From a virus: a DNA stretch of 31,704 bases. Within the stretch, counting starts at the first letter, position 1; every line of letters starts with the position of its first letter. The notes under the pieces were generated by a model. The model made no database searches. It was not told the origin of the DNA and saw nothing but the letters and a program-made list of their open reading frames with translations. Shown piece after piece: positions 5,246-30,193 of this stretch. Both the position numbers and the translations under genes were made by a program. The stretch is taken from positions 1 to 31,704 of the IMG/VR virus record IMGVR_UViG_3300044616_002294. The stretch is one strand, 5' to 3'.

Positions 5246-7120
5246 TTAGGTGCCTGTAACAAACCACTGCGAAGCCCCAGCTTGTATGGTTACGCAGCTC
5301 CACTGTGAGGGGAGAGAGTATGTGGTTGCTCCGTTGATCGTTTCTGATCCGTTGCCGTCTAGCGTTACTGCGTTGATAGATGAGTCCGTTTTGATGATCG
5401 TGTAGATGCGGCCAATCGCCGAGGCAATAGATGGCAGGTTGACAGTAACTGCTGCGCTTGTGGCGTTGCATTCCACAAGGCCGGAAAAGCTCGGAGGTGA
5501 TCCCGTTGAAACCATGCCGCTTGTCGTCGATCCCTGATCCGTAAATGTTGGCTCCGCCTCGTCATCGCAGCGGATCAAACCAACCTGCCGCATGTCGATC
5601 GTGCCTTGTCCTGATGCGGTGAACCAAAGCGCCGAAAGCTTCGCCCCACCAGCGACAACAATAACAGGACTGACAAACACGCCGTCAAAGGCTGGGAAAT
5701 CAAGCGGGTTGGCTGCGATCAAATCAACGTCTTGGTTAAGTATCGCCACTCCATTGCTGTTCTGGATAACTGTAATGGTGAAATTCGAGAATCCTGAGCC
5801 TTTTGCTCTCATGATAATTCTGAATTTCATTCCGCCGTAAATGATTGCATTAGGGAAATCCAGTTTTAGTCCTTTGCCGTTTGACCTATTGGAGCCGCCG
5901 ACAACAATCCGCTGCCATTCGCCCTCGGTGTCCGTCACCTTTGAAAAAGTCGTGGTTGCGTTCGTCGCGTCTGTGATCGTGTTGATTGCCCAGGTTGTCG
6001 CAATGTTCCCGCTGTATCCCGTCCCGCTGACAGCTACTGATCCCGTCATGTATGGGTTTCCAGTGAGCCATGGGCCATCGGATGAGTGAGGGATTGCAAA
6101 TGGAGCGTCTGGCAAAATAGGCTCAATGGCTGCCGCGACCTCTTGCCCAAGCAGCAATGCTCCGACCTTGTTTGGGTGGATAAGGTCGCGGTAATACGAT
6201 GCAACAGGTGCGCCAGCGGAACTGAAGACAGATGGATATGCTACCCATGTGATGCCGAGAGTGGCCGCGTCCGCCTGATTGATCGCATTTACCGCATCGG
6301 CAAAAGTTGTGATCGTGGAGTTTGTGTGGGGCAGGATCGCCACCGCGAAGATGTTTTCAGCGGGGATTCCGCCGAGGATCATCTCGTCCCATAATGCCTT
6401 CCGTTTCGCAGCTACCTGCGCGATGGTGTATGTAAAAACATCAGCAACATCATTCGCGCCAGATAACTCAACCACGATGGGGTTCCTGTCCCGCGCCCGA
6501 TTGAGCAAGGCGGAAAGCTGGCTGTTCGAACCCGTTACCGCCTCCACGGCACGGGCGGCAAAGTTGCCCGCCGTGGTGTTACGAATCGCGTTGATGGTTG
6601 CGCCCGATACTCCAAAATGACTGAGCGATGAGCTTTTGCGGCGTAGAAGTGATCGAGTCCTGCCCTTAAGGTGAAAGTTGACCCAATGGATGAAGCCGGA
6701 AGCGTTCATTCGAAGGTAGTTGCCAGAGAAGGAGTCGGCTTGTTCTGTGATGCTGTCACCGATGAAAGCAATGAATCGTGTCTGGTCACGCTGGTTGAAC
6801 CCGTCCTCGATCTGCGCGGCGGCTCCGGCGGGCGTCTCCGCTCCCAGTTCCGCGATCTGCGTGGCGGCGTTGGCGGCGGTTAGGAGGGCGCGGCCTGCGG
6901 CGGTGCTGTCGGAGATCTGACTGGCGGTGACATTCGCACCCCCTACCTCTACCCCATTGACGAAGGCCTTGGTGGCGGTGAAGGCCAGCGGGCTTTCGGT
7001 GCCGTCTCCTTTTAGGAGGGGCTGCGGGGTCTGGCCGTCTGCCGGAAAGTTCCCGGCCGTCTCAAATTGCGCGAGGTTGCGGTAAGTTCCGCGCGGATTT
7101 GTTGTAAGTGGTTTTCCCAT
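5246..7120 (-). CDS. tail fibre/spike with SGNH (GDSL) hydrolase domain
   Basis: The product has 624 residues. Residues 1-110 look like a virion-attachment and collar region. Residues 113-345 are an SGNH hydrolase: block I IGDSIT (nucleophile Ser123), block II Gly near FGVSGATIN (165-176), block III GAND (221-224) and block V DLIH (312-315, Asp/His). This family removes acyl or acetyl groups, so the likely role is deacylating host surface glycan during adsorption. The rest, about 350-624, is beta-rich, as in trimeric fibre tips. The gene is visibly less GC-rich than its neighbours, especially 5300-6800. It is flanked by two genes carrying the same DPGDF repeat. Confidence 0.75.
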   Translation of the reverse strand: MGKPLTTNPRGTYRNLAQFETAGNFPADGQTPQPLLKGDGTESPLAFTATKAFVNGVEVGGANVTASQISDSTAAGRALLTAANAATQIAELGAETPAGAAAQIEDGFNQRDQTRFIAFIGDSITEQADSFSGNYLRMNASGFIHWVNFHLKGRTRSLLRRKSSSLSHFGVSGATINAIRNTTAGNFAARAVEAVTGSNSQLSALLNRARDRNPIVVELSGANDVADVFTYTIAQVAAKRKALWDEMILGGIPAENIFAVAILPHTNSTITTFADAVNAINQADAATLGITWVAYPSVFSSAGAPVASYYRDLIHPNKVGALLLGQEVAAAIEPILPDAPFAIPHSSDGPWLTGNPYMTGSVAVSGTGYSGNIATTWAINTITDATNATTTFSKVTDTEGEWQRIVVGGSNRSNGKGLKLDFPNAIIYGGMKFRIIMRAKGSGFSNFTITVIQNSNGVAILNQDVDLIAANPLDFPAFDGVFVSPVIVVAGGAKLSALWFTASGQGTIDMRQVGLIRCDDEAEPTFTDQGSTTSGMVSTGSPPSFSGLVECNATSAAVTVNLPSIASAIGRIYTIIKTDSSINAVTLDGNGSETINGATTYSLPSQWSCVTIQAGASQWFVTGT

Positions 7121-11171: not shown

Positions 11172-12188
11172 TTACGTGAGGGTCGGTGCTGTCTTGCGGA
11201 TGCCCAGCGAGCTGGTCAGGTCGATGGAGCTGTAATGCTCAACCGTGATCGCCGTGCGCTTGAGGATCGGCGTGATGTAAACGCGGAACATGCCGCCGCC
11301 CGGCACCGCAGTGACGAAGCGTTTGATGTTGCTCGGATCGTTCGGCATGGCACCGGCCTTCGCGTAGTAAGAGAAGACCTTGTTGTCGCCGACCTTGGTC
11401 TTCGCTGTGGCGCTGGCCTGGTAGCGGATCTTCGCCTTAACGACTTTCTCCACTCCGAGCAGCTCGGCGAGTTGTTCCGGCGTGAGGTTGCGCGTCTGGT
11501 GGCGGGCGGCATTGCTGCCCACGCCCAGGCTCAGGAAGCGGCGCAGCCAGGCACCGCCGCAGAATACGACGACGTTGCCATCGATGCCGCGTGCGTCGCC
11601 GCCGAGTTCGAGGTCGGCTGCGATGTTACCGTCCGGATCCGCCGAGGCGTTCGATCCGCCCCAGTTCGGGGTGAGGGCGGTGTCGTTCGCCTCAAGCAAC
11701 GCTTCCGTCCGGTAAATCTCCGTGCGGAGAAGACGGTTGCGGAGGTTAGTGACCGCGCGTTGTTGCACGGCTGGATCCTCGCCGCCCTGGTCGTTGTCCA
11801 GGATCATGGTGAGACCTTTGTTCGCGGTGCGTCCGTTGACCTGTGTGCCTTTCGGGCGGATGTTTGCAAACTCTCCGCCGATTTCGCGGATGTCCTTATC
11901 CGCAAGCATGGCCTGGAAGCTCGCGGTGTCATCCGCTTTCAGGTAGGTGAACGCGCGTCCGACGGGAACCGATGGGGCCATGGCCTCAAGGATCACGTCG
12001 AGACCTTCTTCGTCCGGCGTATCGGCTACGAATTCCGAAAGCGGCTCGGACAGGTGTGCCGAGTCGAAGTTCGCATCGTTGGCCGCGAGGATGATGCCGC
12101 TTTGGGCATCGGTGGTGAACGATCCGAAGAGTTGCGTCGAATCGTTGAGGAGTGCGGAATTGCCCGCGAGCATGAGTAACTTTTTCAT
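11172..12188 (-). CDS. major capsid protein (Mu gpT-like)
   Basis: The 338-residue protein follows the protease/scaffold and decoration genes. The sequence includes PVGRAFTYLKADDTASFQAML, LLRTEIYRTEALLEAND and the late beta segment FVTAVPGGGMFRVYITPIL, consistent with an HK97-fold capsid protein. The N-terminal region (MKKLLMLAGNSALLNDSTQLFG) may be trimmed by the prohead protease. Its position between the protease/scaffold and the DUF1320-like connector is the standard place for the capsid gene in Mu-like phages. Confidence 0.75.
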   Translation of the reverse strand: MKKLLMLAGNSALLNDSTQLFGSFTTDAQSGIILAANDANFDSAHLSEPLSEFVADTPDEEGLDVILEAMAPSVPVGRAFTYLKADDTASFQAMLADKDIREIGGEFANIRPKGTQVNGRTANKGLTMILDNDQGGEDPAVQQRAVTNLRNRLLRTEIYRTEALLEANDTALTPNWGGSNASADPDGNIAADLELGGDARGIDGNVVVFCGGAWLRRFLSLGVGSNAARHQTRNLTPEQLAELLGVEKVVKAKIRYQASATAKTKVGDNKVFSYYAKAGAMPNDPSNIKRFVTAVPGGGMFRVYITPILKRTAITVEHYSSIDLTSSLGIRKTAPTLT

Positions 12189-12771: not shown

Positions 12772-13380
12772 TTAGGCCTTACCGAAAAGCTCCGGGTTCT
12801 TCTTCTGCGCCCGCTGCCAGGCGAGGCGCTTCCGCTCCCCGAGGCTTTGGTTCGGGTTGGTGGCCTGAAATTCGCTTTCCACGAGCTGCGCACGCTCCTC
12901 GCGGGCGGCTTTGCTCTCGTCGTTGGCCGCGAGCACCATGCGGCTCTTCGCGCTGCCCAGGTCGCCGGTCGCGCTGGCGGTCTTCACCTTCGGGGCGGCG
13001 GCGTTGAGTTCCTTGAGTGCATCGGTGAAATCGTTCGCGGCGAGGATCTCGGTCACCTTCGCGTCCTTCTCGGCGGGAGTGATCTTCCCGGCGGCGATGG
13101 CGGAGTCCACGGCATTCGCGGCGGCGGTGGCGAGGTGACCTTCGAGCACGGTCACCTTCTTGTTCGCGGCTTCCTTCTCCTCCTCGGCGAGCCTGGCCTT
13201 TTCCTCGGCGGCTGCTTTTTCCTCCTCCGCCATTTTCAGAGCATCGGGATCCGGAGCTTCGGGCTTCTCCGCATTCGCTGCGGCCTCGGCGGCTTCCTTG
13301 AGGGATGCGATTTTTGCCAGCGCATCCTCAGCGGTGGCACCTTCTTCAAGCCCGAGGGCTGCTAGCAGTTCTGGATTCAT
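12772..13380 (-). CDS. nested scaffold protein (Mu gpZ-like internal start)
   Basis: The in-frame ATG at 13380 begins MNPELLAALGLEEGATAEDALAKIASL. This closely matches the style of the internally started Z scaffold in Mu (from memory). It would give a 202-residue coiled-coil protein identical to the C-terminal half of the protease fusion. No strong ribosome-binding site is visible, only AGAAG a few bases upstream, so independent translation is inferred. Confidence 0.5.
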   Translation of the reverse strand: MNPELLAALGLEEGATAEDALAKIASLKEAAEAAANAEKPEAPDPDALKMAEEEKAAAEEKARLAEEEKEAANKKVTVLEGHLATAAANAVDSAIAAGKITPAEKDAKVTEILAANDFTDALKELNAAAPKVKTASATGDLGSAKSRMVLAANDESKAAREERAQLVESEFQATNPNQSLGERKRLAWQRAQKKNPELFGKA

Positions 13381-13968
13381 ATCTTCTTGGTTGGTTTGAG
13401 ATTGTTCTTCTGACTCCTGACCTCTGACCTCTGATTCCTCATATTCATTGGCGAGAGCAGGGACGGGGATGTTCGGATCATTCGTGAGACCCATGGACTT
13501 GAATGCAACGGGCTGGATCCCGCCCTTCACCGGGCGCGTCCACCAGAGCGGGGAGTAGTATTTGAAGTGGGCGTTCTCCACGAGTTCGCGCCCGGCCTCG
13601 CTCCATTTCACGGACAGCCGCATTCCGGTTTCCTCGGGGATCATGTTTTCCACCCAGCCGTAAGACTTCTTGTCGGTGTCCTTTGATCCGGGAAGATCCG
13701 GATGTCCGATGTAAACCGGATAGGAGGGACTCTCCCCGAGCGCCCAGCTCACCAACCGCTTCACAAGGCCGTTATGATTCGCGGCGATCCTCTCGGCGGC
13801 AGCACGGTCGAATTTCTGCTTGCCCAGCTTGTGCGGATAATCCCCGTAAGGCACGAAAAACGAATCTCCCTGGAGGATCGCAAATGGGCTGCAATTCTCC
13901 GTAGCGTTCGCCAGGAGCGTGACATCGGCGGCATCGTTCGCCGCGAGGGTGAGGTGGTCAGTTTTCAT
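12772..13968 (-). CDS. prohead protease-scaffold fusion (Mu gpI-like)
   Basis: The product has 398 residues. Residues 25-170 resemble the Mu I protease (peptidase U35), with candidate catalytic His in YIGHPD (residue 89) and Ser in YYSPLWW (139). A low-complexity linker at 175-195 (EYEESEVRGQESEEQSQ) joins a highly charged coiled-coil scaffold half (197-398). An internal ATG at 13380 would make the scaffold alone. The 5' end overlaps the portal 3' end by 11 bases. The protease would mature the prohead and degrade the scaffold. Confidence 0.7.
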   Translation of the reverse strand: MKTDHLTLAANDAADVTLLANATENCSPFAILQGDSFFVPYGDYPHKLGKQKFDRAAAERIAANHNGLVKRLVSWALGESPSYPVYIGHPDLPGSKDTDKKSYGWVENMIPEETGMRLSVKWSEAGRELVENAHFKYYSPLWWTRPVKGGIQPVAFKSMGLTNDPNIPVPALANEYEESEVRGQESEEQSQTNQEDMNPELLAALGLEEGATAEDALAKIASLKEAAEAAANAEKPEAPDPDALKMAEEEKAAAEEKARLAEEEKEAANKKVTVLEGHLATAAANAVDSAIAAGKITPAEKDAKVTEILAANDFTDALKELNAAAPKVKTASATGDLGSAKSRMVLAANDESKAAREERAQLVESEFQATNPNQSLGERKRLAWQRAQKKNPELFGKA

Positions 13969-16219
13969 CGGTCTCTGTGAGTGCGGTTAGAAGCTCGACT
14001 CCCATGGCCTCCGCCAGCGCGGTGCTTTCGAGGAAATCCGGCATGTCCTTGGAAATCTTTTTCAGCGCCGCCTTCATCGCCGCCTCATCGCCCGCGTTGA
14101 ACGCCGCAAACAGCGCATCGCCCAGAGGTTGCAGATCCGCTGCAAGGGAGATGCGGAGCTTGTCCGTTTGGAAATATGCGGCTTCGTTGGCTATACCTAC
14201 CACGCCCGCCGCGTTTTCGGTAGGCTCCCCGGAAGATGCCGAGGATGACTGATCAAAACGGCGGGACAAAGGGATCAGTCTACCAGATGTATCCCTTTTG
14301 AACACATTGTTATCACTGCCGAATTTAGAATAACTAGTATATGTCTCGGGCTTTCTGACTACATCCAAAACGACAGCATCACCTAAGACGGTCTCACCCA
14401 AATCTTCACCGCCCTGCGCCGAACTACCTGAGATAAGAGCAGGCTGTTGTCCAGAATAAGATCCCCCAGTTTTTTTGCCAAAGCCCTTCGGATTGATACC
14501 CATCAAGTTCATCGCCCGCACCATTGTTTCCCGATCTCCTTCAACTAAAATGGATGAAGTTCCGGGCAACTCTTCTTCTGTTCGATTACCATCAACCCAG
14601 ACCGCCGAATTCCGAAGATTTTCACCGACAACAACCGTGTGCCCGTCTATCGCCCGTATTCCGTAATAATTATTACCTCCGTCTGCTTCAATAGCGCTGA
14701 TGAACCTATCTGTGATTTTTTCAGCTTCTAGCTTGGCTGCTTGGTTCAATAGTTCGATAGCAGAATCCTTGTCTCCACGCTCTACAGCACCAAGATACGC
14801 AGCATCCATTTCGGGGGTGACGGCAGAATCAACCGGCAGGGTTCCGTCACCAATGTCTGCCCCACCGGGCGTTTTGTTGTCGATGCCATGGGATTTATCT
14901 GATAATGCGCCTTTTGTCCACCTCCCGCCGTCAGGTTCACCCTTCGGTGCCCGCGCCTGGAGAGGATTGTAAGCATTCTCAGCCGCAATATCTTCCTCCG
15001 TCTTCTCTTTCTCTGGTTTCTGGTATCTGGTCTCTGGCTTCTCAGCTTCTTCCACAATCTCCCGCCCATAGCGCTCCGCTAGATCCGCCGGATCCTGCTT
15101 CACGCCCAGCTTCACGAGTCCGGTGTCAATCGCCAGATCGCGGGTGAGGTCTTCGTCGCCCGGTGGATTCACCACGATGTAGGCCGCCGGTTTCTCATCG
15201 CCATGCACCATGCGGATCACCAGCCGGTCGAGCTGCGTTTGCAAGGTTTCGGAGATCATCGCGCAATCGTCCTGAAGAAGCGCATCGGTTTCCTCGGCCT
15301 GCGGGTTCGAGCCGGTGCCTTCACTGCGGGAAATGGTGGAGAGGTCTCCGCCGCGCACCAGGGTGGCGATGGCTCTGTCCATGTATTCGATGATGGACAT
15401 CGGCGGCAGCGTGCCGGAACTCGGCGTCTGCATGATCTCGATGGGGTTCTTGATCGAACCGTCGTCCGAGTAGGTGACGCCCACCCAGTCCGAAGCGTAG
15501 GCCAGCACGGAATCGCGCATGGCGCGGCCTTCGTCGCTGTCCTTCTGCGCGCTCGTCCGGCCAAGCACGCCCGGCACGGAGAATTTCTCCGAGAAGGAGA
15601 TCAGATCCTGCACGCCCAGCCGCTTGAACTGATAAAGGATCGAAAGCGCCTCGCCCAGCCCGTCGCCCACCGTGATCATCCAGCCGTCCTCTTCCAGCGG
15701 CATCCCGTCCGAGCGGTTCTCGACGCCGACGAATTTGAGCTTCCCGGTGCGGTTCTCGAAAAAGTAGAGCGGCACCCGGCGCAGCTCGGCGGTCATGCCT
15801 CCCTCGGAGGGCTTCCAGATGATCTCATGCACCGCGTATTTCTGGAGCACGGCATCCATCATCTGCCGCAGCAGGCCGGACATGCCGGTGCGCACGTTGC
15901 CGTCCGTCGCGTCGGTGGTGGTGAGGTTGTTGTAGAAATACAACAGCGTTGCCTTGTGCGCCTCGGCGTTCGGATCCTCCGCGTCCGGGACGATGATCTG
16001 CCAGTCCCGCCGCGCCACCGCCGCACGGCGCTTGCCCATCACCGATTTGATGATCGCCTCGCGCCCCTCAATCGTCTCGAAAATCAACGCCGCATCCCGC
16101 AGCCAACCCGCCGCCCACTGGTCAAGCGCGGACGCGAGCCGCTCCGGTGTCAGCGACCGCAGCGGATTGAAGCGCGTCTGCCTCCAGCGCAGCCCAAGGC
16201 TCTCCATGCCGATATTCAC
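13958..16219 (-). CDS. DUF935 portal protein carrying an inserted cargo-like module
   Basis: The start is GTG at 16219, chosen for a strong ribosome-binding site (AAGGAGGT on the minus strand, 16225-16232). The product has 753 residues. Residues 5-410 are the Mu gp29-type (DUF935) portal core (SLTPERLASALDQWAAGWLRDA; SEKFSVPGVLGRT). Residues 423-656 are an unexpected module opening with RAPKGEPDGGRWTKG, containing DAAYLGAVERGDKDSA and closing with GRLIPLSRRFD. Residues 681-753 (DKLRISLAADLQPLGDALFAAF...) resume a portal-like helical C-terminus. The DNA of the module (about 14250-14900) is much more AT-rich than its flanks. The portal forms the ring through which DNA enters and leaves the head. 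Confidence 0.75.
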   Translation of the reverse strand: MNIGMESLGLRWRQTRFNPLRSLTPERLASALDQWAAGWLRDAALIFETIEGREAIIKSVMGKRRAAVARRDWQIIVPDAEDPNAEAHKATLLYFYNNLTTTDATDGNVRTGMSGLLRQMMDAVLQKYAVHEIIWKPSEGGMTAELRRVPLYFFENRTGKLKFVGVENRSDGMPLEEDGWMITVGDGLGEALSILYQFKRLGVQDLISFSEKFSVPGVLGRTSAQKDSDEGRAMRDSVLAYASDWVGVTYSDDGSIKNPIEIMQTPSSGTLPPMSIIEYMDRAIATLVRGGDLSTISRSEGTGSNPQAEETDALLQDDCAMISETLQTQLDRLVIRMVHGDEKPAAYIVVNPPGDEDLTRDLAIDTGLVKLGVKQDPADLAERYGREIVEEAEKPETRYQKPEKEKTEEDIAAENAYNPLQARAPKGEPDGGRWTKGALSDKSHGIDNKTPGGADIGDGTLPVDSAVTPEMDAAYLGAVERGDKDSAIELLNQAAKLEAEKITDRFISAIEADGGNNYYGIRAIDGHTVVVGENLRNSAVWVDGNRTEEELPGTSSILVEGDRETMVRAMNLMGINPKGFGKKTGGSYSGQQPALISGSSAQGGEDLGETVLGDAVVLDVVRKPETYTSYSKFGSDNNVFKRDTSGRLIPLSRRFDQSSSASSGEPTENAAGVVGIANEAAYFQTDKLRISLAADLQPLGDALFAAFNAGDEAAMKAALKKISKDMPDFLESTALAEAMGVELLTALTETDEN
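14252..14953 (-). other. low-GC module embedded in the portal gene
   Basis: This segment encodes portal residues 423-656. Its edges carry two motifs I associate with phage-borne polymorphic-toxin or MuF-type cargo proteins: an Arg-Pro-Lys-Gly-x-Pro-x-Gly-Gly-Arg-Trp-Thr element, and a Gly-x-x-Ile-Pro-Leu-Ser-x-Arg-Phe element. The interior (residues about 490-610) is unrecognised. It has a strand-rich part (GHTVVVGENLRNSAVWVDG) and a helix (DRETMVRAMNLMGINP). Confidence 0.6.
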
Positions 16220-16351
16220 AGCGCACCTCCTTTGCCATCGCGCCACGAAGCCCTTGCACAGCGTTGCAAGCGGCTTTTTGCGCGATTATCGCCCGTTCCT
16301 TCGGAAAAGTTAGATACCCCCCTAAAATCGCCTCCTACAGCTCTTTTTTCG

Positions 16352-29143: not shown

Positions 29144-29417
29144 GAGCGGTTCCTCTCTGCCGCCTGTTTGGAATCCGCTCGATGATGAGTTCGAGGAAAT
29201 CCTTGGAGGCTCGTGGGCCGTAATCAGAACCGCAGATGGATGGGAGATTGAATGCCAGCATAGTCAGACGACTCTCCCGCTAAAATCGACCGAAATGGGA
29301 TCCGCGAAAATCGAGGGCAGGAAATTAGCCCGTCAATTCGAGCAGCGATATCTGCCGAACGCTCAAGCGATGGCAGCCGCCGACACCGCCACTCCGACGA
29401 AGGAAACGACTTTATGA
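29118..29417 (+). CDS. hypothetical protein preceding the methyltransferase
   Basis: The product has 99 residues, with VWNPLDDEFEEILGGSWAVIRTADGWEIECQ as its most ordered part. The stop overlaps the methyltransferase start by four bases. Third-position GC is clearly lower here than in the transposition genes, as it is in the methyltransferase, so the two may have come as one cassette. It could be an accessory of the enzyme. Confidence 0.5.
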   Translation: MPLRNKAAKSGSSLPPVWNPLDDEFEEILGGSWAVIRTADGWEIECQHSQTTLPLKSTEMGSAKIEGRKLARQFEQRYLPNAQAMAAADTATPTKETTL

Positions 29418-30193
29418 TACCTGAAACCTACGAAACACCATCGCAGGCGGATTGCCATCCGCGCCTTGTTCATCCTCTTACGGATCACGGGGGGATTGCG
29501 ATCTATCTGGGCGACTGCCTGGACATCATGCCGCAACTGGAAAACGACACCTTCGACGCCGTGGTGACTGATCCGCCATACTCCAGCGGAGGCCGCACGC
29601 AAGCTGCAGCTCGGAACGTGGTCAGCAAATCAGACAGCCGGGAAGCCGATGAGTGGTTCATGGGCGACAACATGGGAGTTGATACCTACATCCGCTGGAT
29701 GCGCCAAATCGCACGGGAAAGCCTGCGCGTGGTGATCCAAGGCGGCCATGCCTACGTCTTCACCGACTGGCGGCAGTTCACGAACCTCTCGACGGCGTGG
29801 GAAAGCATCGGCTGGTCTCTCCGCTCGGTGATCGTCTGGGACAAAGCCAAAGGTGGGGCAATGGGTAGCTTCTGGCGGAACAATCACGAATGGTGCTGCG
29901 TCTTCACGAAAGGCCAGCCAAACCCGCCCGCGCATCGCTCCTGCTTCAACACATGGACAGGATCGAAGCCACAAGGCCACGAACACCCGACGGAAAAGCC
30001 GCTGGGACTCATGACCTACATCATCGGGGCGATCCCGAAAAGCACGGGGAAAATCCTCGAACCGTTCGCAGGCTCTGGCACCACGCTGGAAGCCGCGAAG
30101 CTGTGCGGATTCGGTGCCGTCGGAATCGAACGGAACCCGGTCTATGCCAAAGCCTGCGCCGCCAAGATTTCACAGGGGACGCTCGCTCTATGA
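29414..30193 (+). CDS. DNA methyltransferase (DPPY, beta-class-like)
   Basis: The product has 259 residues. DPPY (53-56) comes before the AdoMet motif FAGSGTT (218-224), the beta-class order of N6-adenine or N4-cytosine methyltransferases. HPTEKP (191-196) is the usual neighbour of the AdoMet pocket. No partner endonuclease gene is visible, so it is an orphan enzyme that may shield phage DNA from host restriction or mark it, a role comparable to mom in Mu though by different chemistry. The target sequence cannot be told. The composition differs from the flanks. Confidence 0.8.
   Translation: MIPETYETPSQADCHPRLVHPLTDHGGIAIYLGDCLDIMPQLENDTFDAVVTDPPYSSGGRTQAAARNVVSKSDSREADEWFMGDNMGVDTYIRWMRQIARESLRVVIQGGHAYVFTDWRQFTNLSTAWESIGWSLRSVIVWDKAKGGAMGSFWRNNHEWCCVFTKGQPNPPAHRSCFNTWTGSKPQGHEHPTEKPLGLMTYIIGAIPKSTGKILEPFAGSGTTLEAAKLCGFGAVGIERNPVYAKACAAKISQGTLAL

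What the first reader, a model, noticed from the sequence alone, without database searches (positions are those of the whole stretch)
14252..14953. Cargo-like module inserted inside the phage portal protein
Seen: a DUF935-type portal core (about residues 5-410) and a portal-like helical C-terminus (681-753) are separated by about 230-260 residues with a sharp drop in GC. The insert begins with RAPKGEPDGGRWTKG, contains DAAYLGAVERGDKDSA, and ends with GRLIPLSRRFD. From memory, these three motifs recur around mobile toxin or effector domains carried by phage head proteins, especially MuF-type proteins. Inference: the portal, normally only a DNA channel, may carry an effector that is cleaved off or delivered with the DNA. 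The central domain is not one I recognise. No separate MuF gene follows the portal, where Mu has one.
Basis: partly seen in the sequence, partly recalled or inferred. Interest (0 to 1): 0.85.

Follow-up and report, generated by a model that had tools for sequence, protein, structure and literature searches.

The report
Mobile effector-like cassette inside phage portal
The DNA-channel protein of this Mu/B3-like phage carries, spliced into a flexible linker, a mobile cassette of the kind found in giant phage "injected effector" proteins, with an undescribed payload family that looks like an ADP-ribosyltransferase, so the phage may carry a dozen copies of a host-modifying enzyme inside its head.

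Summary
The 762-aa portal (13958-16246, minus) matches Pfam Portal_Mu at residues 55-394. Its closest relative found (L002, 83% identical core, 478 aa) lacks residues ~398-681 completely but keeps the short helical tail, so this is a true internal insertion. Cassette GC3 is 0.41, against 0.85 for the core.

The insert is modular. The motif pair DAxYLxAVxxGD...IPLSxRF[D/N] recurs in giant phage polyvalent proteins; 26 of 39 such cassettes scanned carry ART-PolyVal. A seawater virus (L010) has the whole cassette, 54% identical, at the end of another protein. The PxGxPxGGRWT linker recurs after other portals and MuF, and before RNase toxins.

The payload belongs to phrog_18666 (unknown function). 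It also occurs as a ~110-aa stand-alone phage gene and inside proteins with LPD22, LPD37/38 or ART-PolyVal. Two AlphaFold models place rifampin ADP-ribosyltransferase (Arr) at or near the top (Z 5.5-5.6, weak); Arg, Ser and Glu are near-invariant.

Most likely this is head-carried effector cargo in the portal linker. Packaging, release and enzyme activity are inferred. Portal-effector fusions are already published, so this is a new variant: an internal site and a new payload family. Only one such portal was found.

The parts
13958..16246 (-). portal ORF, 762 aa, GTG start
   Evidence: Portal_Mu PF06074 res 55-394 E 6e-54; phrog_113 portal E 2e-30
15056..16207 (-). portal core, residues 14-397
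   Evidence: 83% identical to L002 portal; GC3 0.85
14204..15055 (-). whole inserted segment, residues 398-681, absent from L002
   Evidence: GC3 0.46
14909..14953 (-). motif 1 linker RAPKGEPDGGRWTKG, residues 432-446
   Evidence: same motif in a Portal_Mu (L056), a PF04860 portal (L059), MuF (L073) and RNase-toxin ORFs (L054, L060, L071)
14255..14818 (-). mobile cassette, residues 477-664 (TPEMDAAYL...IPLSRRF)
   Evidence: 54% identical over its full length to the C-terminus of another protein in L010, E 4e-68; both cassettes GC 0.47-0.48
14771..14806 (-). motif 2 DAAYLGAVERGD, residues 481-492
   Evidence: 113 distinct ORFs with this motif in IMG/VR, 81 with IPLSxRF[DN] downstream
14351..14728 (-). 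payload domain, residues 507-632; near-invariant R531, S547, W550, Y597, G613, D615, E618
   Evidence: phrog_18666 E 4e-13 at res 526-630; alignment of 28 members; AF2 models
14252..14302 (-). motif 3 FKRDTSGRLIPLSRRFD, residues 649-665
   Evidence: hhalign to ART-PolyVal cassettes: prob 95.7, E 8e-9 over this stretch
14180..14194 (-). IANEA, residues 685-689: candidate maturation-protease site between cargo and tail
   Evidence: motif [LIMV]A(A)N[DEAS]: 5 copies in the protease, 1 in MCP, 1 in portal; conserved in L002. Inference only
13958..14203 (-). portal C-terminal helical tail, residues 682-762
   Evidence: 38% identical to L002 tail, E 1e-7
12772..13968 (-). Mu-I-like head maturation protease, next gene
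   Evidence: PF10123 E 9e-21; phrog_328

Best explanation
A low-GC cassette of the kind found in phage polyvalent proteins has been inserted in frame into the flexible linker between the core and the C-terminal helices of a Mu-type portal. Its payload, a phrog_18666 domain, is probably a small ADP-ribosyltransferase-like enzyme. As the portal C-terminal region normally faces the inside of the head (established knowledge of portals), about twelve copies would be held inside the capsid. They are then either freed by the neighbouring maturation protease and ejected with the DNA, or act from the assembled portal, to modify a host molecule early in infection. Shown: insertion, modularity, recurrence of the flanks, membership in phrog_18666, co-occurrence with ART and LPD domains. 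Inferred: ART activity, capsid location, release and delivery.
For: Insert-free relative L002. Same cassette in an unrelated protein of L010. Flanking motifs in 113 distinct ORFs, median 1929 aa; 81 with both motifs, median motif spacing 183 aa against about 177 here. 26 of 39 such cassettes hit ART-PolyVal PF18760. Payload beside LPD37, LPD38 and ART-PolyVal in L050 and beside LPD22 in L005. 27 of 28 payload relatives hit phrog_18666. Two AF2 models of different members: Arr at Z 5.5 (second) and Z 5.6 (first); in the second model the four best rows are Arr, Arr, Arr-2 and AvrPphF ORF2, Z 5.6-3.6, the next row 2.3. Arr-ms, AvrPphF-ORF-2 and ART-PolyVal are ART families (PMC7955679). R531, W550, Y597, D615, E618 invariant and S547 27/28. 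Portal fused to PBECR, 2H and InPase domains is published (PMC5512222), and head/portal-fused ARTs too (PMC9503650).
Against: Fold matches are weak: Foldseek's best PDB E-value is 0.9, Z is below 8, and the tool warns that middling Z is common. Profile comparison of the payload core with the ART cassettes, flanks removed, finds nothing. No virion data, no active-site geometry, no assay. Only one portal with this insert was found. No MuF or LPD domain in the polypeptide itself.
Confidence: 0.6

Rival explanations
1. The cassette is effector-type cargo, but the payload is not an ADP-ribosyltransferase; it is another small domain (binding protein, inhibitor or other enzyme) of phrog_18666.
For: No sequence link to any ART; best Z only 5.6-6.0.
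Against: ART folds lead both structural lists, and the usual payload between these motifs is an ART.
Confidence: 0.22
2. The insert is a neutral or structural passenger: it sits in a tolerant linker and has no role after infection.
For: The linker is variable in other Mu-type portals and L002 does without the insert.
Against: The frame is intact over 280 codons, and residues conserved over the whole family, including Arg, Ser and Glu, are all kept in the portal copy.
Confidence: 0.1
3. The payload acts in the producing cell or lysogen (for example as a toxin or immunity factor made late), not in the next host.
For: The stand-alone gene is followed by a helix-turn-helix gene in several phages (L011, L014, L043/L044, L053), as in toxin-antitoxin or regulator pairs.
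Against: In the portal it would be made with the head genes, and its other fused forms are in polyvalent proteins, thought to be packaged and injected (PMC5512222).
Confidence: 0.08

Closest known systems
Portal fusions to PBECR, 2H and InPase effector domains (Iyer et al. 2017, PMC5512222) and head/portal-fused ARTs (PMC9503650)
   Same: A portal polypeptide carries an effector-type domain thought to be packaged and injected.
   Different: The payload family here has no Pfam or NCBIfam model, and the cassette is inside the portal, before a retained portal tail.
Phage polyvalent proteins with ART-PolyVal (PF18760)
   Same: Identical flanking motifs and spacing; the payload also occurs in such proteins (L005, L010, L050).
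   Different: Here the carrier is a structural portal without LPD domains, and the payload is not detectably ART-PolyVal by sequence.
MuF polymorphic toxins (PMC5576092) and portal-MuF-PBECR2 fusions (L230, L231)
   Same: Head protein at the portal vertex plus exchangeable effector domain; the PxGxPxGGRWT linker also follows a MuF domain in L073.
   Different: No MuF domain here; the payload is internal, not C-terminal.
Arr rifampin ADP-ribosyltransferase
   Same: Best structural neighbour of the stand-alone model (Z 5.6, 88 residues, rmsd 3.5).
   Different: No sequence similarity found by Pfam scans; the domain has Arg where Arr uses His (Arr residues from memory).

Membership tests
Portal_Mu (PF06074) portal | full-length match to the portal domain | tested here: met
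   profile 3-335 of 336, 184 bits against cut-off 23.9
phrog_18666 | profile match of the payload | tested here: met
   E 4e-13 within the portal, 6e-14 for the insert alone; 27/28 relatives
Polyvalent-protein effector cassette | DAxYLxAVxxGD and [IV]PLSxRF[DN] at typical spacing around one payload | tested here: met
Polyvalent protein (as a whole polypeptide) | several conflict-related or LPD domains in one polypeptide | tested here: not met
   Pfam finds only Portal_Mu
MuF polymorphic toxin | MuF domain (PF04233) N-terminal to the toxin, gene next to portal | tested here: not met
   no PF04233 match in the record
ADP-ribosyltransferase superfamily | ART fold | tested here: inconclusive
   Arr Z 5.5/5.6, AvrPphF ORF2 Z 3.6; Foldseek not significant
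ADP-ribosyltransferase superfamily | clade-typical catalytic triad (R-S-E, H-Y-E/D/Q or H-H-h) | tested here: inconclusive
   R531, S547, E618 near-invariant in R-S-E order; geometry not examined
ADP-ribosyltransferase superfamily | NAD-dependent activity | not testable with these tools
   needs an assay
Injected virion effector | present in virion and delivered with DNA | not testable with these tools
   needs virion proteomics and infection assays

The most novel reading that the evidence does not exclude
A dodecameric portal acts as a magazine for a new ADP-ribosyltransferase family: the enzyme is built in as an internal portal domain, excised by the phage's own maturation protease at [LIMV]A(A)N[DE]-type sites, and ejected with the genome in fixed stoichiometry.
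Probability: 0.22. Interest if true: 0.8.

Novelty: new variant of a known kind. Interest (0 to 1): 0.55.

Why it matters
It shows that the exchangeable effector cassettes of giant polyvalent proteins also enter an essential oligomeric head protein, at an internal site. It gives a function hypothesis (ADP-ribosyltransferase-like) to an uncharacterised phage family that is also widespread as small stand-alone genes. If the cargo is delivered, the number of effector molecules would be set by the portal ring, and the maturation protease would be the release switch, which is directly testable.

Tried and rejected
Single-protein scan of IMG/VR with the insert found nothing; a two-sequence portal alignment and a cassette alignment found only L002 and L010, so no second portal with this payload is known. 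PLSDB plasmids: none. 398 Pseudomonadota genomes: only the genome of L005. PDB by sequence: nothing. NCBIfam and PADLOC: nothing for portal or payload. Foldseek against PDB: no E below 0.9; BFVD: only two sequence relatives at E below 0.001. RbcS and DNA-ligase rows in the VIA list (Z 3-4) were dismissed as unrelated middling matches, since they vanish or fall to Z near 2 with the second model. B12-binding_2 hit (E 0.07-0.12) is below its cut-off and was dismissed. Ordinary portal variation was rejected because none of the long Portal_Mu ORFs that I read has such an internal insert: L226 and L230/L231 are C-terminal MuF fusions by Pfam, L228/L229 read the same way. An assembly chimera is unlikely: one open frame, both cassette ends intact, and the conserved tail follows. 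Whether 2aua (BC2332, Z 6.0) is an ART-clan protein (DUF2441) is from memory only.

Full report
What is there. The minus-strand ORF 13958-16246 encodes a 762-residue portal. Pfam Portal_Mu covers residues 55-394 (E 6e-54). Downstream lie a Mu-I-like protease, a cement-like protein and a major head protein candidate; upstream lies the large terminase. The terminase resembles those of transposable phages such as Pseudomonas B3 (57.7% over 72% of the query). The record is an IMG/VR virus contig.

The insertion is real. In IMG/VR the only close portal is L002: 83% identical over residues 5-404 but 478 aa long. It passes directly from the core to a tail, MANEAEYFQADELR..., that aligns to our IANEAAYFQTDKLR... 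tail with 38% identity, E 1e-7. Residues about 398-681 have no counterpart. The cassette has GC 0.470 and GC3 0.41, both below every one of 182 equal-length windows taken from other ORFs of the record and from the portal core. In other Mu-type portals this place is a variable, often Pro/Ala-rich linker (reading of the sequences).

The flanks are a known kind of cassette boundary. The 113 distinct ORFs recovered are all at least 150 aa, with a median of 1929 aa, and 81 carry [IV]PLSxRF[DN] downstream, at a median spacing of 183 residues; here it is about 177. Of 39 such cassettes scanned, 26 hit ART-PolyVal. Profile comparison links our C-terminal flank to theirs (prob 95.7, E 8e-9). The first motif, PxGxPxGGRWT, was found in 22 stretches. 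Among the real ORFs it lies after a Portal_Mu domain (L056), after a PF04860 portal (L059), twice after MuF (L073), and before RNase toxin domains (L054, L060, L071).

The payload. Residues 526-630 match phrog_18666, unknown function. Relatives: Mannheimia phage 3927AP2 gp16, 130 aa, followed by an XRE-type gene; Blautia phage Montmirail, 110 aa; about twenty IMG/VR stand-alone genes; and embedded copies in L005 (with LPD22), L050 (with LPD37, LPD38 and ART-PolyVal) and L010. L010 holds the complete cassette with both flanks, 53.7% identical, E 4e-68, with the same low GC (0.482) in a richer background. R531, G541, W550, G562, Y597, G613, D615 and E618 are invariant in 28 aligned members, and S547 is kept in 27.

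Fold. AlphaFold2 gave mean pLDDT 84.7 for residues 476-666 of the portal and 83.4 for a stand-alone relative, L018. Foldseek found no significant PDB match. The VIA-align second look ranked BC2332 (Z 6.0, rmsd 3.0, 76 aligned) and Arr (Z 5.5, rmsd 2.9, 84 aligned) first for the portal domain, and Arr (Z 5.6, rmsd 3.5, 88 aligned), Arr (4.9), Arr-2 (4.0) and AvrPphF ORF2 (3.6) first for L018, with unrelated rows at 2.3 and below. Arr-ms, AvrPphF-ORF-2, DUF2441 and ART-PolyVal are listed as ART families in PMC7955679. This is a lead, not proof: Z below 8 can be a common arrangement, and sequence profiles of the payload cores show no link.

Mechanism. Most likely the portal carries the payload on two flexible linkers next to its C-terminal helices, which in portals lie on the capsid-interior side (established knowledge, not tested here). 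The maturation protease is the next gene. The short motif [LIMV]A(A)N[DEAS] occurs five times in that protease, once near the N-terminus of the major head protein candidate (position 34) and once in the portal at 685, exactly between cargo and tail. Those in the portal, head protein and most in the protease are conserved in L002, and the motif is nearly absent from the other ORFs scored. This suggests, but does not show, a cleavage site. A cut there alone would remove the tail and leave the cargo as the portal C-terminus; release needs a second cut, for which the linker at 420-446 is the natural place. After ejection the enzyme would modify a host target, as T4 Alt does (PMC5512222).

Known or new. 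Iyer et al. 2017 report portal fusions with PBECR, 2H and InPase domains and interpret them as injected effectors; ARTs fused to head or portal proteins are also reported. In 398 Pseudomonadota genomes, 65 had Portal_Mu; the longest ORFs examined here are portal-MuF or portal-MuF-PBECR2 fusions, with effectors at the C-terminus. The present case differs in its internal site and its payload. It is therefore a new variant of a known kind. It is not a MuF toxin.

Limits. One example of this portal was found. Host unknown. No virion, structural or biochemical data. The payload is not shown to be an enzyme.

Noticed in passing
L230:876-3587:+ and L231:1752-4451:-: Pseudomonadota genomes encode single-chain Portal_Mu-MuF-PBECR2 fusions of about 900 aa.
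   Followed up: partly
L056:2966-5527:+: Portal_Mu protein of 854 aa with a long C-terminal extension joined by FDPAQVRAPRGGPGGGRWTKGG; the extension has no Pfam match.
   Followed up: partly
L073:4940-6958:-: MuF protein with two consecutive PxGxPxGG[RQ]WT-joined modules, the last with an ART-like YRGT...EGEVV pattern (read by eye).
   Followed up: no
L011:6004-6630, L014:398-1013, L043:2935-3566, L053:2941-3604: Stand-alone phrog_18666 genes directly followed by a small helix-turn-helix gene; possible toxin-antitoxin or regulator pair.
   Followed up: partly
window 12772-13968, 11172-12188, 14180-14194: Repeated LAAND/LANE-type motif in protease, major head protein candidate and portal: candidate maturation-protease recognition site.
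   Followed up: partly
L050:1-6264:+: Giant phage protein (at least 2088 aa) with ART-PolyVal, LPD37, LPD38 and the phrog_18666 domain.
   Followed up: partly
window 5246-7120 (-) and 29414-30193 (+): Weak GDSL-lipase-like match (below Pfam cut-off) in a 624-aa ORF, and a DNA methyltransferase gene.
   Followed up: no
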